From IMG/VR virus record IMGVR_UViG_3300045970_000591, positions 59,383-123,382 of that record: a stretch of 64,000 nucleotides of DNA; one strand, 5' to 3'. Of this stretch, positions 42-64,000 are shown piece after piece (position 1 is the stretch's first letter; every line of letters begins with the position of its first letter). The stretch is from a virus. The notes beneath the pieces are model-generated. The model saw only the letters and a program-made list of their open reading frames with translations. It did no database searches and was not told where the DNA came from. A program made the translations under genes and the position numbers.

Positions 42-1214
42 ATGGCAACAAAGCTATTTGAATCAAACTGGGGCGCTACAAAACAAGCCCTTTTAGAAGG
101 CCTATCAGGAACCCGCCGCCAATCCATGGACACAGTGTTTGAAAACACTCGTAGATATTTGGCAGAATCGGCAACTGCTGGTGCCACACAATCAGGTAAT
201 ATTGCAGTTCTTAACAAAGTAATGCTACCTTTAATCCGTCGGGTTATGCCGACCGTTATCGCTAACGAAATCATGGGTGTTCAGCCTATGACAGGTCCTG
301 TGGGTCAAATCCACACCCTGCGCGTTCGTTACGCTAACACTGCCGCTGGTGTAACAGCTGGTACAGAAGCACTTGGTCCATTCGAAATTGCTAAGGCATA
401 TTCGGGTAACGAAGTTGCTGCTAATGCCGCAGCCGCATCGACAGCACGTTTAGAAGGCGTACCAGGTAACAAGTTAAGCATCCAAATCTTGAAAGAGACC
501 GTGGAAGCTAAGACACGTAAGTTATCAGCTCGCTGGACATTTGAAGCAGCACAAGATGCTAATGCTATTCATGGTATTGACATCGAAGCAGAAATCATGC
601 AAGCTCTTGCACAAGAAATCACTGTTGAAATCGACCAAGAAATGTTGTTCAAGTTAGGTAGCTTAGTGCCAGTTGCACCAACTACATTCAACCAAGCAGC
701 AGTGTCTGGAACAGCTACTTATGTTGGTGACGAAATGGCCGCTCTTGCAGTCATGATCAACCAGCAAGCAAACTTGATTTCCACTCGCACACGTCGCGGT
801 GCAGCTAACTGGGCAGTTGTTTCGCCAACAGCGTTAACAATTCTTCAGTCTGCTACTACATCGACATTTGCTCGTACCACAGAAGGTACATTCGAAGCAC
901 CTACAAACACAAAGTTTGTTGGTACATTGAACAGCACAATGCGCGTGTATGTGAACCAATACGCAAGTGATGGCGACCCTATTTTGTTAGGTTACAAAGG
1001 CCCAACAGAAACAGACGCAGCAGCTTACTACTGCCCATACATTCCATTGATGAGCATCGGCCCAATCATGGATCCACAGACTTTCGAGCCAGTGGTTTCG
1101 TTCATGACACGCTATGGCTACTTGGAATTGACCAACACAGCAAACAGCTTCGGTAACGCAGCTGACTATTTGTCCAAGGTTGGAATAGACAGCAGCACAT
1201 TGAAATTTTATTGA
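42..1214 (+). CDS. Major capsid protein, T4 gp23 family
   Basis: The 390-residue product forms the capsid shell. Family-typical stretches are readable: QSGNIAVLNKVMLPLIRRV near residue 50, VQPMTGPVGQIHTLRVRY near 80-97, and KLSARWTFEAAQDANAIHGI then EIMQALAQEITVEIDQE near 160-200, all close to T4 gp23. It is shorter than T4 gp23 (about 520 residues), like many distant T4-type viruses. A purine-rich ribosome site (aggaga) lies 8 bases before the ATG. The upstream operon is outside the window. A hairpin terminator follows. The prohead cleavage site was not located. Confidence 0.95.
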   Translation: MATKLFESNWGATKQALLEGLSGTRRQSMDTVFENTRRYLAESATAGATQSGNIAVLNKVMLPLIRRVMPTVIANEIMGVQPMTGPVGQIHTLRVRYANTAAGVTAGTEALGPFEIAKAYSGNEVAANAAAASTARLEGVPGNKLSIQILKETVEAKTRKLSARWTFEAAQDANAIHGIDIEAEIMQALAQEITVEIDQEMLFKLGSLVPVAPTTFNQAAVSGTATYVGDEMAALAVMINQQANLISTRTRRGAANWAVVSPTALTILQSATTSTFARTTEGTFEAPTNTKFVGTLNSTMRVYVNQYASDGDPILLGYKGPTETDAAAYYCPYIPLMSIGPIMDPQTFEPVVSFMTRYGYLELTNTANSFGNAADYLSKVGIDSSTLKFY

Positions 1215-49390: not shown

Positions 49391-50077
49391 ATGAAAACAC
49401 AACGCAAGATTTTAGTAGTAGACGACGATCCAGTAGTAGGTAAAAGTTTTGAGAAGGTATTAACTAGCAAAGGCTACGCAGTTATCAACTGCCATAGCGG
49501 TGCAGAGGCCTTAGAAAAACTAGGAAAAGAAGAATACGATGCAGTATTCACTGATCTTAAGATGCCAGAGATGGATGGTATGGAAGTTGCTACAAGAGTA
49601 AAAGCAAGTCAGCCATGGATGCCTATCGTTATTGTTACGGGTTATGGATCCAAAGAAAGTAGAATACAGGCAGAAACATTAGGTATTACTGACTTCATGC
49701 AGAAGCCTTTAACACCGGAAATGATTGAAGAAAGCGCAGATCGCGCAATGCTTGAAAAACAATCTATTGTTGATGTGGTAGAAGAAGTAGCTGCACCTGT
49801 TGCAGAAGAACAACAGTCGAAAGCGTTGGCTATCGCATTATTTTTCGCAGCACCATTTATTGGTTTGCTATACGCAATGTTTATGCCTATCGTAGGTTTA
49901 GGAATGTTAGCATATGTTGCTTATAAGGCATTCGCAAAAACAAAAGTATTCACACACGTTAAGAACGTGGGATTACTTATTTCTGCTCCGTTTATCGGAT
50001 TAGCATACGCAGTATCTATGCCGTTTGTTGGCATAGGCATGCTATTATATGTTGGTGGTAAAGCGGCGTTTAAGTAA
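49391..50077 (+). CDS. Response-regulator receiver domain with membrane-embedded tail
   Basis: The product has 228 residues. A complete CheY-like receiver fills 1-125: acidic D11/D12/D13, phospho-acceptor D55 in FTDLKMPEMDG, T83 and K105 (MQKPLTP). There is no DNA-binding output domain. Instead residues 145-228 hold two repeats of a hydrophobic unit (FFAAPFIGLLYAMFMPIVGL and LISAPFIGLAYAVSMPFVGI), predicted membrane hairpins. It could capture phosphoryl groups from host histidine kinases at the membrane. No kinase is nearby. Confidence 0.85.
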   Translation: MKTQRKILVVDDDPVVGKSFEKVLTSKGYAVINCHSGAEALEKLGKEEYDAVFTDLKMPEMDGMEVATRVKASQPWMPIVIVTGYGSKESRIQAETLGITDFMQKPLTPEMIEESADRAMLEKQSIVDVVEEVAAPVAEEQQSKALAIALFFAAPFIGLLYAMFMPIVGLGMLAYVAYKAFAKTKVFTHVKNVGLLISAPFIGLAYAVSMPFVGIGMLLYVGGKAAFK

Positions 50078-58764: not shown

Positions 58765-59832
58765 ATAGCAAGTAGTTATTAGCAAGTAGTACGCGACAGA
58801 AGACAACGCTTAATGGTCGACTGTCAGATCACCGAATGTAAGCAGAGAATAGGAAGCGTACTACTTACTAATAAAGATTTAAGGGGGTTTAGTCTCCTGT
58901 GATAGGTATGGTTCGCCCAGCTTGTTGCGAAGGATAAGCATCGTAAGGTGCCCAAGGGCGGAATGTCTACATACCGTCTCCAGTAATGGTCCATACTAAG
59001 CAAGCCTGCTCAATGCCGCAAGGCATCCTTATCGGATAACACCGGGTGAGGTAACATTGAAGTAAGTGTCAAGGAAAGAATGACTGCTCAAGCGCCGAAA
59101 GGTAACGCAAGCAGTTGAAAAGTAACAGGTGGTGCTGACTTCTTGACAAACCAACTTATTAGATGGTATGAGAAAGGGTAGTGTATTTGTCCGAGCCGTC
59201 GCAAGCAAGGGCTTATATGCAGTTTGAATGGTTTATGGCACCTGTCAAAGGGTGACATCGATCGTGAAAGACGACTTAGTAGCCCGCAAGCGAAAAGTAC
59301 GTGATGTGTTGTATTATGTATCTAACAAGGTATGTATCAACTGAAGTAGCACATCGCAGTAGATTGGCTTAACCGCCGCTCATATGGTTATTTGAACAAA
59401 AGCAAAGACTACTTCGGTGATATTTGAAAGACATCTAATACTTGGGCCGCAAGGTAACTAAGTCTGTTAAAGCTCGCAAGGTAATAACAGTTTATGATAG
59501 AAAGTTCGGAACGGTTTAGCGACTGTGTACTGCTCGCAAGGCAGACGGGAAAGAAATCATAGAGTAGAGTATCACGTCAAGTCTACTGCCTGACTTTAAA
59601 AGGCGATGTTGTTGGTAGACTAGGTTACCGCAAGGGGCTTAGTGGATGTCGTAAGAAGGTTTACTCGCAAGGTATACTGATAATGTACGAAGTATCAACG
59701 CAAAGATTGTAATCTCAGATCTTTGATATAAGAAAGCATATTATGACGAGGGTAGGCAATATAGTCTAGAATGTATAGGTGATGCGTCTTAATAAGAATC
59801 GGACTCTTAGTAGTGTGCTTCCTTATATCCTC
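58765..59832 (+). ncRNA. Giant structured RNA (GOLLD/ROOL-like)
   Basis: About 1.07 kb without a plausible coding frame. Helices readable by eye: 58778-58794 with 58856-58872 (16 of 17 pairs), 58905-58910 with 58970-58975, 58914-58918 with 58956-58960, GCATC-GTAA-GGTGC, ATGCC-GCAA-GGCAT (59013-59026), AAAGAT/ATCTTT and 59726-59739 with 59815-59828. At least nine CGCAAG sequences (C-GCAA-G tetraloops) are spread through 59018-59698, several as CTCGCAAGG. Size, GNRA density, phage context and adjacency to tRNA genes fit the giant phage RNAs GOLLD or ROOL. Class assignment is inference; the 3' end is estimated. Confidence 0.75.
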
Positions 59833-60774: not shown

Positions 60775-60850
60775 ATCTGCGTATAATTCAATGGAAGAAT
60801 ATTCGACTTTTAATCGAACTACCAGGGATCGTTACCCTGTGCGCGGACCA
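60775..60850 (+). tRNA. tRNA-Lys(TTT)
   Basis: Acceptor CTGCGTA/TGCGCGG with G-U pairs, D-stem ATTC/GAAT, anticodon TTCGA-CTTTTAA-TCGAA, T-arm CAGGG/CCCTG, CCA encoded. Confidence 0.8.
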
Positions 60851-60902
60851 TATAACACACGGTTAGTAGACAAATACACAGTTAATTTATATAATACATT
60901 AC

Positions 60903-60992
60903 CATATTTAAATACACTGTCCCACAAAAGGGCAAAGGTCAGAGGAACTGATCATCCTCGCGCTTCGGCAACCAACAGTGTGTTTTAATATG
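60903..60992 (+). repeat. E-family bracketed RNA unit E1
   Basis: CATATTTAAATACACTG pairs with CAGTGTGTTTTAATATG. The interior has CCC-ACAAAA-GGG and GAGG/CCTC hairpins, tRNA-like in size but without a T-arm. Confidence 0.55.
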
Positions 60993-61090
60993 GTACGTGA
61001 GGTATGCAGGACGTCAAAGTGTATATCCTAAGACATAGACAAAATATTGCGGCCGTGATATTCGACTAGTTTTAGGTTAACTCATGTACC
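60993..61090 (+). other. Segment E2 between two E-family units
   Basis: GTACGTGAG at its start can pair with CTCATGTAC at its end, continued by the flanking TTTTAATATG and CATATTAAAA arms. The bracket arms can therefore pair in two alternative registers. Confidence 0.45.
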
Positions 61091-61092
61091 GC

Positions 61093-61185
61093 CATATTAA
61101 AATACATTAAACGGGAATATACTTGGCGCGACTATTCTTAAACAGCCAAGCGCACGACCGCTACCGCATAGTGTATTTTAATATG
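61093..61185 (+). repeat. E-family bracketed RNA unit E3
   Basis: CATATTAAAATACA and TGTATTTTAATATG form a perfect 14-bp stem. Inside, CTTGGC/GCCAAG is perfect with GCGACT... in the loop. No frame and no cloverleaf. Confidence 0.6.
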
Positions 61186-61317
61186 ATATCCATTTCAGAG
61201 TGTTGACCGGTTTATTCTGCAATGCTTTGATTTATAGTTGTTCGCAATCGAGGGGATTTCGCAGAACGAAAGTTTAAGAGCGTTTAGTACTGAAATTTGC
61301 CAGCTAGATGGTCCTAC

Positions 61318-61454
61318 CATATTAAAAAGCACTGTGGCACTGTGGTAACGAGCCTTCTTAGCGGTTGGCGTTATGGGTTATTCGGTGCTAATCCCAGCGG
61401 TTAGGGGTATAAGTTGCAACTTCCGGTTCGAATCCGACAGTGCTTTTTAATATG
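61318..61454 (+). repeat. E-family unit E5 containing a tRNA-like gene
   Basis: CATATTAAAAAGCACTGT and its exact complement at 61437-61454 form a perfect 18-bp stem, which merges with the acceptor stem of the tRNA-like gene inside. Confidence 0.65.
61329..61446 (+). tRNA. Irregular long tRNA-like gene
   Basis: GCACTGT/ACAGTGC acceptor, a class II-style D-arm GGCACTGTGGTAACGAGCC, a variable-type arm AAGTT/AACTT and a T-arm GG-TTCGAAT-CC are readable. At about 118 nt it is 25-30 nt too long, with extra hairpin TGGGTTA/TAATCCCA in the middle. No CCA. Anticodon not assigned. Confidence 0.45.
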
Positions 61455-61460
61455 ATAAAC

Positions 61461-61484: not shown

Positions 61485-61499
61485 GAGTAAAATCCCTAG

Positions 61500-61506
61500 A
61501 TAAATA
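61500..61506 (+). promoter_or_regulatory. Late-type box before the barrel gene
   Basis: AGATAAATAG ends 4 bases before ATG 61511. It places the cassette under the phage's own promoter type. Confidence 0.5.
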
Positions 61507-61510
61507 GTTG

Positions 61511-63511
61511 ATGCTATGGCGTATCCTAATCCTCTTCCTCTTCGCAACTGCGTCATACGCACAGGATAACACCATCAAGGCCATTTCCGGCATGCCATCC
61601 TCGAACGTAGAGATGATCAAGATTGAAATGGTAAGCCCGATACACCAAACACCAGATAGTTTCGACATAACCACACCACCGACGCTGGTGATGGATTTTG
61701 AAGATGTGACAACCGTTGCCCCGCGAAGCGTATCAATCAACCAAGGCAATGTGCGCTCTGTATCTGTGGTCCAATCGGACACCCGAACAAGGGTAATCAT
61801 AAACCTATTCCGTCACACTGATTACAGACTGATGCTCCGTGGCAACTCACTAATGGTAGTGCTTGACAATCCGTTTGAAACAGCAACACCAATGGATACG
61901 CGCCCACCTAAAGAACTACTGGCAGTGGCAAAGAAAGTCCTTGCTGAAGGTAAAGATCCGCAGGAAGCTATTGATGCCCTAAACGCCCTGTTGATGTTGC
62001 CACCAGACGCAACTGCCCAAGAGGCACAAGAGTTGATTGCTGTGGCATACGAGAAGGCTGGTAACCCGGCGAAGGCAATGGCAGAGTTACGCGCATACAT
62101 TGCGATGTATCCAAATAGCAGGAACATAACAAGCCTACGACAGCACCTGATTGCGATGGAGATTGCCACACCACCAGTTCATCTACAAGGGCTGGCAGCA
62201 CGAAAACCGCGCACCGGCAAAGAGAGCAAGGTAGATACAAGCATAACGGAATACTACTACTCAAGCGGAGACCAAGCAGCGCTCATCTCAAATGTCCGAA
62301 CATCAGCAATGTTCCGTGACGACGAGTTCACCACTAAGCTACAATACAGACATTCAACCTATTCAACCATAACAGGAACAGCGCAAAACCGCAACCTGAT
62401 ATCCGTGGCATTCGCCGATTGGGAGAACACATATCGAGGGTACGGGTTCAGAGTAGGTAGACAACAGCCGGCAGATGGTGCCATTGGACGCTACGACGGT
62501 GTGTCCGGAAGGTATGCCGTGAGCGAAGCCTCAACAGTCAAGGTGCTCTTTGGCATTCCATACACCGGAGACAACACTGCTAAACGCCGCTTCTACAGTC
62601 TGGCCTACAGCTACTTCAACGGAACGCCGTGGTCCTTTGACGCATACTACGATCATCAAACAGCAGACTCCCTACCAGAACGACAGGCCCTGGGCCTTAC
62701 TGCCCGCTACTTCAAGAACGACATCTCAGCCACTGCCATAGTGGAATACGACTTCCTATATAGAGTGCTGAACACAACGATGTTCCAAAGCAACATGAAG
62801 TTTGGGGATTACGGCATTTACATACTGGCAGACCGCAGGAAGTCCCCGGTGCTATTTGCCAACAGGGCGCTACTTATCGGCCTAAGCGGTGCCAATCACC
62901 AAGCATACGACACAGTGGCGGAGGTGCTGGAAAAGTCCGGCCTGTCCCATCAGTCAATTTACCAGTTCATCAACGAAACTACGCCGTATAGCTCTGTGTA
63001 TGTCCTGGGTGTCAATAAACAGATAACACCTAAGTGGAACCTAAGCGTAGATGCCCAGTTCTCCAACACCACTGCCAGCACCGATCCTGAGTTCATTCCA
63101 AGCATTGACATGCCGGTGTCCTTAGTGGCGCAGCAAGGTTCAGGTAGAATGATGACGCTAAACGCTCAACTCTACGGTCAGAATGTCCGTGAGAAGGGCA
63201 ACTCAATAAACGCCTTGGTTAGTCTGACTAAAGGTGCGGAGTCAAGCGGTTACACCCTGACCTTCCTTGACTCAACGCCATACAAAGGATTGCGCTTTGA
63301 CACTATGATGATGTATTCCAAGCACCATACGGCGTGGAACAGCACTGGCAACCTCACTGCGTCACTCAAAGTGAACTACAAGATAAACGAGCGTTCAACC
63401 TTTGAGGCGCAAGTGTCGCTAACTAAAACAAACACGCAAGATCAGCAGAACGAAATCTCATCAAGCGCATTTTCACAAACGGTATTTTTAGGTTGGAGGA
63501 TTGACTTTTGA
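61511..63511 (+). CDS. Secreted outer-membrane beta-barrel protein with AMIN-like and TPR-like parts
   Basis: The product has 666 residues. A signal peptide (MLWRILILFLFATASYA) is cleaved near 17. Residues 35-125 resemble an AMIN-type periplasmic domain (TLVMDFEDVTT...LMVVLDNPFE), 135-210 are TPR-like helices (AYEKAGNPAKAMAELRAYIA), and 230-666 alternate amphipathic beta-strands ending in Phe, as in outer-membrane barrels. TTG 61508 is an alternative start. Base composition is near 50% G+C against roughly 35-40% before. It is coupled to the cytochrome gene. Confidence 0.75.
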   Translation: MLWRILILFLFATASYAQDNTIKAISGMPSSNVEMIKIEMVSPIHQTPDSFDITTPPTLVMDFEDVTTVAPRSVSINQGNVRSVSVVQSDTRTRVIINLFRHTDYRLMLRGNSLMVVLDNPFETATPMDTRPPKELLAVAKKVLAEGKDPQEAIDALNALLMLPPDATAQEAQELIAVAYEKAGNPAKAMAELRAYIAMYPNSRNITSLRQHLIAMEIATPPVHLQGLAARKPRTGKESKVDTSITEYYYSSGDQAALISNVRTSAMFRDDEFTTKLQYRHSTYSTITGTAQNRNLISVAFADWENTYRGYGFRVGRQQPADGAIGRYDGVSGRYAVSEASTVKVLFGIPYTGDNTAKRRFYSLAYSYFNGTPWSFDAYYDHQTADSLPERQALGLTARYFKNDISATAIVEYDFLYRVLNTTMFQSNMKFGDYGIYILADRRKSPVLFANRALLIGLSGANHQAYDTVAEVLEKSGLSHQSIYQFINETTPYSSVYVLGVNKQITPKWNLSVDAQFSNTTASTDPEFIPSIDMPVSLVAQQGSGRMMTLNAQLYGQNVREKGNSINALVSLTKGAESSGYTLTFLDSTPYKGLRFDTMMMYSKHHTAWNSTGNLTASLKVNYKINERSTFEAQVSLTKTNTQDQQNEISSSAFSQTVFLGWRIDF

Positions 63512-64000
63512 AAACATTACTATTTTTATTGGCACTGGTGTGCTTTGACGCCCAAGCGGCGGAATGTACCCTATACGAGCAGTCCCATCCGGCGTTTCTA
63601 CTCAGTGGCTCACACCTATCTACTGGTAAGTGCGGCACCTGCGCCAGCTGCCATATCAACAGTGTGTTCACCGGAACACCTACTTCCTGCGTTCAGTGCC
63701 ACAACGGTGATCCATCACGACTAACGGTCGGAAGATCAGCTAAACACATTCCTACCGCCCTACTTGAGTGTAGCTACTGTCACACCACATTGACATTCAC
63801 TGTGGCAACGATGAATCATGTCCCTGTCACTGCCTCAGGAACTAAATGTATAACCTGTCACCTAACAGGAACATCATGGATTGGTAATATGGAGAAAATG
63901 TCCCTTACTCATCAACAAAGAAGCCCTGTCCCTACTGATTGCTCAATGGCAGGATGTCACCGTCCACTTGGAAACAGAGGAACTCTATACCGAAATTGGG
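63508..64000 (+). CDS. Multiheme c-type cytochrome (partial, runs off window)
   Basis: At least 164 residues from a TTG start that overlaps the upstream stop (TTGA) with GGAGGA 8 bases before it. A signal peptide (KTLLFLLALVCFDAQAA) is followed by four CxxCH haem sites (CASCH, CVQCH, CSYCH, CITCH) and one C-x4-CH (CSMAGCH), with extra His residues that could be distal ligands. It is periplasmic or secreted, and haem insertion would need the host Ccm system. More haem sites may lie beyond the window. Electron transfer with the adjoining barrel is inferred. Confidence 0.85.
   Translation, partial: MKTLLFLLALVCFDAQAAECTLYEQSHPAFLLSGSHLSTGKCGTCASCHINSVFTGTPTSCVQCHNGDPSRLTVGRSAKHIPTALLECSYCHTTLTFTVATMNHVPVTASGTKCITCHLTGTSWIGNMEKMSLTHQQRSPVPTDCSMAGCHRPLGNRGTLYRNW

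What the first reader, a model, noticed from the sequence alone, without database searches (positions are those of the whole stretch)
61500..64000. Multiheme cytochrome plus outer-membrane barrel on a phage genome
Two translationally coupled genes encode a secreted AMIN/TPR/barrel protein and a multiheme c-type cytochrome with five haem motifs before the window ends. They follow T4-like capsid, tRNA and ncRNA genes directly, sit behind a phage-type promoter box and a terminator, and are visibly richer in G+C than the rest, which suggests recent transfer from a host. A barrel-cytochrome pair recalls porin-cytochrome conduits for extracellular electron transfer, so the phage may keep respiration or metal redox going during infection.
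Basis: partly seen in the sequence, partly recalled or inferred. Interest (0 to 1): 0.95.

Follow-up and report, generated by a model that had tools for sequence, protein, structure and literature searches.

The report
Phage-encoded outer-membrane electron conduit
A family of very large viruses of bacteria carries its own miniature version of a bacterial "electron wire" complex (an outer-membrane barrel plus haem-rich proteins), which suggests that viruses may rewire how infected cells exchange electrons with their surroundings.

Summary
The window is the right end of a 123-kb virus contig, so the contig itself ends inside the cytochrome gene. The pair (22-strand AMIN/TPR/beta-barrel protein; pentahaem cytochrome) is not a chimera or host fragment. 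A near relative, a 369-kb T4-like phage with a 96% identical capsid, carries the cassette in its own tRNA array behind the same GATAAATA late-promoter box. About 13 distinct phages carry it, under purifying selection (dN/dS 0.04-0.22). Full versions have barrel + 5-haem + 7-haem cytochromes; five records also have a short membrane cytochrome b, and the three tested carry two WX3HX13H motifs and SGXXG. Those are hallmarks of the inner-membrane protein of PCC3, a putative bacterial porin-cytochrome conduit described in 2017. All parts are homologous to a bacterial PCC3 locus (Amphritea, 21- and 63-haem cytochromes). The phage form is a miniature PCC3. Its barrels form one clade together with a single Methylophilaceae chromosome copy. 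I found no earlier report of a phage-encoded multihaem conduit in the open papers searched. Electron transfer across the envelope during infection is the best explanation but is inferred: no function, electron direction or host has been shown.

The parts
42..1214 (+). Major capsid protein, T4 Gp23 type (shows that the contig is phage)
   Evidence: Pfam Gp23 9.9e-78, PHROG 138 major head protein 5.7e-93; 96% identical to the 369-kb relative
59301..59721 (+). GOLLD RNA (context, 3' part of a longer RNA)
   Evidence: Rfam RF02032, 187.7 bits, E 2.9e-51
60777..60850 (+). tRNA-Lys(TTT), last tRNA of the array before the cassette
   Evidence: ARAGORN, Rfam
60902..61455 (+). Three structured RNAs (60902-60992, 61092-61185, 61317-61455), each closed by a long stem CATATTnAAA...TTTTAATATG; same kind of element directly before the cassette in two other phages
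   Evidence: Folding z-scores -5.1, -5.0, -4.4; matching flanks in L002 and L003
61460..61485 (+). Intrinsic-terminator-like hairpin with T-run
   Evidence: Sequence
61499..61506 (+). Late-promoter-like box GATAAATA, 4 nt before the barrel ATG
   Evidence: 12 of 23 + strand ATAAATA sites lie within 60 nt before an ORF start, 0.86 expected; same box in the 369-kb relative
61511..63511 (+). PCC3-type outer-membrane porin: signal peptide, AMIN (about 61619-61858), TPR (about 61907-62167), 22-strand barrel (about 62219-63508)
63508..64000 (+). Secreted pentahaem c-type cytochrome (MS), cut by the contig end; a 7-haem cytochrome probably follows
   Evidence: order in relatives

Best explanation
A phage-encoded miniature PCC3-type porin-cytochrome conduit. 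Shown (about 0.95): these genes belong to a T4-like large phage; they are homologues of the porin and multihaem cytochromes and, in sister phages, of the inner-membrane cytochrome b of bacterial PCC3 clusters; in sister phages they are kept under purifying selection, and in this phage they sit behind a late-type promoter box. Inferred: during infection the barrel is inserted in the host outer membrane and holds or docks the 5- and/or 7-haem cytochrome. The cytochromes bridge the periplasm to a quinol-linked di-haem cytochrome b, either the phage's own or the host's. The chain moves electrons between the quinone pool and an outside acceptor or donor (humic substances, Fe minerals, other cells). 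The most likely benefit is to keep electron flow, and hence membrane energy, running late in infection in oxygen-poor Gram-negative hosts, perhaps Methylophilaceae or other Burkholderiales. Outward flow (anaerobic respiration) is favoured slightly over uptake from Fe(II).
For: Homology of all parts to the Amphritea PCC3 locus (PMC5566968); three phage b proteins meet both WX3HX13H motifs and SGXXG; in bacterial loci with enough flank the barrel is mostly next to a multihaem cytochrome gene; 22-strand barrel model; cassette conserved in about 13 phages with dN/dS 0.04-0.22; phage clade with support 100; late-type promoter box; near relative with the cassette in its tRNA array.
Against: No function of PCC3 itself was demonstrated in the papers read. 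Haem numbers (5 + 7) are far below those of bacterial PCC3. The b gene is absent from 9 of 14 records, though most of these are fragments. The barrel model cannot show a cytochrome inside it. Host and expression are unknown.
Confidence: 0.6

Rival explanations
1. Artefact: a chimeric join near 61.45 kb put a piece of bacterial chromosome on the end of a phage contig.
For: The pair lies at the very contig end and is richer in G+C; read coverage could not be examined.
Against: Same gene order in about 12 other phages, most with the cassette well inside the contig; same promoter box in the 369-kb relative; barrel falls in the phage clade; same kind of RNA hairpin before the cassette in two other phages.
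Confidence: 0.02
2. Surface remodelling: the mini-complex competes with or replaces the host's own PCC3 conduit, which may serve other phages as receptor, and so excludes superinfection or shuts down host electron export.
For: Barrel sequences diverge fast and differ between close phages (28% barrel against 96% capsid identity), as expected for surface-exposed parts; the phage parts are shortened versions of the bacterial complex.
Against: Would not need 5-7 conserved haem sites in each cytochrome under strong constraint (dN/dS 0.04-0.18), nor a cytochrome b with all haem-ligand motifs; a late promoter box is late for exclusion.
Confidence: 0.12
3. Periplasmic redox buffer: the cytochromes store electrons, detoxify oxidants or handle haem iron in the periplasm, and the barrel is a porin without a cytochrome inside.
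For: Sizes of 5 and 7 haems resemble small periplasmic c7/c3 cytochromes; some records lack the b gene.
Against: Barrel and cytochromes stay together in phages and in bacteria, which points to a joint function at the outer membrane.
Confidence: 0.14
4. Electron uptake: the conduit works inward and feeds electrons from Fe(II) or other outside donors to the infected cell.
For: PCC3 was first proposed from Fe(II) oxidiser genomes (PMC5566968); such conduits can be reversible (PMC10734462).
Against: Both PCC3 clusters of Sideroxydans ES-1 were down-regulated on Fe(II) (PMC8788666).
Confidence: 0.12

Closest known systems
PCC3 porin-cytochrome c complex (He et al. 2017, PMC5566968)
   Same: Porin, two multihaem cytochromes, inner-membrane protein with two WX3HX13H and SGXXG; the Amphritea locus of this type matches the phage profiles in every part
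   Different: Phage-borne; cytochromes have 5 and 7 haems instead of medians of 21 and 34; b protein half as long; late phage promoter box
Methylophilaceae MAG chromosomal cassette (L016)
   Same: 7-haem, barrel and 5-haem genes side by side; groups with the phage barrels
   Different: On a 2-Mb bacterial contig, other gene order, no b gene beside it
[quoted passage not shown]
   Same: Barrel plus multihaem cytochrome at the outer membrane
   Different: No detectable match of the phage barrel to solved structures of these; decahaem or larger cytochromes
Borg elements of Methanoperedens archaea (PMC11208441, abstract only; cytochrome content from own knowledge)
   Same: Extrachromosomal elements known to carry multihaem cytochrome genes
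   Different: Archaeal, not capsid-encoding phages; no Gram-negative outer-membrane barrel

Membership tests
PCC3 | Outer-membrane beta-barrel porin of the PCC3 kind | tested here: met
   Phage barrel profile hits the barrel of the Amphritea locus at 1e-58; 22-strand model. The published reference sequences themselves were not at hand.
PCC3 | Two multihaem cytochromes (periplasmic and extracellular) encoded with the porin | tested here: met
   MS and ML beside the barrel in most phages; the window shows MS only because the contig ends. Their cellular sites were not tested.
PCC3 | Remarkably large numbers of haem sites (medians 21 and 34) | tested here: not met
   5 and 7 sites
PCC3 | Inner-membrane protein with two WX3HX13H and SGXXG | tested here: met
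   Met by L002, L006 and L007 proteins; b gene found in 5 of 14 records, not in the window's contig
PCC3 | Inner-membrane protein of about 300 aa with five transmembrane helices | tested here: not met
   145-158 aa; the long stretch before the last helix is missing; helix count of the weak model not reliable
Porin-cytochrome conduit (works like) | Electron transfer across the outer membrane | not testable with these tools
   Needs expression and electrochemistry
T4-like large phage | Gp23 capsid and portal on the same contig | tested here: met
Phage auxiliary metabolic gene | On a verified phage genome, with cellular homologues | tested here: met
Phage auxiliary metabolic gene | Changes host metabolism during infection | not testable with these tools
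   No infection data

The most novel reading that the evidence does not exclude
Large lytic phages encode a complete, miniaturised trans-envelope electron conduit (inner-membrane cytochrome b, periplasmic multihaem cytochromes, outer-membrane barrel) that wires infected cells to extracellular electron acceptors or donors: virus-encoded extracellular electron transfer.
Probability: 0.5. Interest if true: 0.96.

Novelty: new variant of a known kind. Interest (0 to 1): 0.9.

Why it matters
Phage metabolic genes known so far act mostly on photosynthesis, carbon, sulphur and nucleotides (own knowledge). A phage-borne trans-envelope electron conduit would extend viral control to respiration with solid or humic electron acceptors, and so to iron, humic and methane-linked carbon cycling. 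It also offers a minimal PCC3 (12 haems instead of tens), small enough to express in E. coli, which would make the untested PCC3 conduit hypothesis of 2017 directly testable.

Tried and rejected
Chimera or host fragment: rejected on relatives, promoter box and tree. Recent host origin: not supported; nearest barrels are phage. Isolate phages (50,697 records): no real homologue. PHROGs has no family for the cytochromes or b protein; the barrel has only one weak unknown-function hit. First genome scan with a narrow pattern gave nothing; a wider alignment worked. Plasmids gave only distant b/c pairs. D. ferrophilus DFE clusters considered: its porin-cytochrome conduits are said not to be apparent (PMC9769857); rejected as the match. 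The AlphaFold model of the b protein was too weak (pLDDT 64) and its fold search uninformative; the case rests on motifs instead. PDB fold search of the barrel gives only generic porins and ushers; the viral library gives generic porins. Origin of the IMG samples could not be found in papers. Paper searches for multihaem cytochromes in phages found none; subscription journals and preprints are not covered.

Full report
CHECK. The window is bases 59383-123382 of a 123,382-base virus record, so base 64000 is the end of the contig and the cytochrome gene is cut there. Both genes are as described: a 666-aa secreted AMIN/TPR/barrel protein (61511-63511) and a cytochrome whose start overlaps its stop, with four CXXCH and one CX4CH. 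The stretch is unusually rich in G+C (49.5% against 40.2%, SD 2.5). The structure model has an AMIN-like region, TPR-type helices and a 22-strand barrel.

IT IS PHAGE. Gp23-type capsid and portal lie on the same contig. The barrel gene follows GATAAATA by 4 nt. In the window, 12 of 23 ATAAATA sites on the + strand sit within 60 nt before an ORF start (0.86 expected by chance; best permuted motif 21%), so this is probably the phage's late-type promoter box, and the cassette has it. A 369-kb relative (capsid 96%, portal 80%, neighbouring head genes 79-90%) has barrel + 7-haem cytochrome inside its tRNA array behind the same box. The barrels of these two close phages are only 28% identical, which suggests that cassettes are exchanged.

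FAMILY. Profile scans of IMG/VR found about 13 distinct phages (20 or so contigs, up to 369 kb) with the cassette. Gp23 capsid was found in 7 of 14 records tested, including four of 266 kb or more; the 166-kb record without it has other phage genes such as RIIA and a DnaB-type helicase. Typical order: barrel, 5-haem (MS), 7-haem (ML) cytochrome; a membrane cytochrome b of 145-158 aa is beside them in three records and elsewhere on the contig in two more. In the window, ML would lie just past the contig end (inference). Haem sites are conserved. Pairwise dN/dS values of 0.04-0.22 among four related phages show purifying selection. No isolate phage in the collection has it.

BACTERIAL RELATIVES. 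The barrel occurs in 44 of 369 genomes sampled from the class of the Methylophilaceae MAG, 22 of 399 from its order and 23 of 187 from its family, mostly directly beside a multihaem cytochrome gene where the short loci held enough flank to see it. Amphritea pacifica (L021) has b (313 aa) - 21-haem - 63-haem - barrel, each matching the phage profiles. He et al. 2017 (PMC5566968) describe this set as PCC3 and give 63 and 21 haems for Amphritea atlantica. They define the inner-membrane protein by two WX3HX13H motifs and SGXXG, proposed ligands for two b haems; the three phage b proteins tested meet all of these. Methylotenera versatilis is among the PCC3 bacteria they name. Putative conduits without homology to known ones were later noted in Methylotenera of an anoxic humic bog (PMC6344600).

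TREE. In a tree of 85 barrels the 13 phage sequences and one Methylophilaceae chromosomal copy form a group with support 100. That copy lies on a 2-Mb contig among cellular genes and is the best pointer to the host range. The direction of transfer between phage and that bacterium is open.

MECHANISM. Shown: anatomy, homology, conservation, phage context, promoter box. Inferred: barrel in the outer membrane holding a cytochrome; cytochromes linking to a quinol-active cytochrome b; net transfer of electrons across the envelope late in infection. Outward flow to humic substances or Fe(III) would keep respiration going in oxygen-poor water. Inward flow from Fe(II) is possible but less favoured, since PCC3 was down-regulated on Fe(II) in Sideroxydans (PMC8788666). 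The much smaller cytochromes might need the host's periplasmic carriers. The function of PCC3 itself has not been demonstrated in the papers read.

NOVELTY. It works like, and shares ancestry with, PCC3; it differs in being viral, miniature and behind a late phage promoter box. The haem-number and protein-length features of PCC3 are not met, so I call it a new variant and not a plain member. The open literature searched has no phage-encoded multihaem conduit; work outside that library cannot be excluded.

Noticed in passing
window 60902-61455; L002 8225-8297; L003 8225-8322: Structured RNAs closed by a 17-21 bp stem (CATATTnAAA...TTTTAATATG), three in the window and one directly before the cassette in two other phages; no Rfam family, one has a tRNA-like GGTTCGAATCC loop. 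Possibly a new small RNA or tRNA-like kind.
   Followed up: partly
window 44844, 52900, 61500 and others: GATAAATA boxes followed by only 4 nt and then ATG, which would give leaderless late transcripts if they act like T4 late promoters.
   Followed up: no
window 49391-50077; L002 5719-6411: A response-regulator receiver protein inside the tRNA array in two phages that both carry the cassette (59% identical).
   Followed up: no
L018 9827-20980: Bradyrhizobium ORF of 3717 aa with 123 CXXCH sites, more than the 85 given as the largest number in the 2017 paper.
   Followed up: no
L016:6766-7242: A type IV major-pilin-like gene lies about 3 kb before the chromosomal cassette in the Methylophilaceae MAG, with transposase-like genes on both sides of the cassette.
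   Followed up: no
window 61517-63511 against the 369-kb relative G954: Two phages with 96% identical capsids carry barrels only 28% identical, a sign of cassette replacement.
   Followed up: partly
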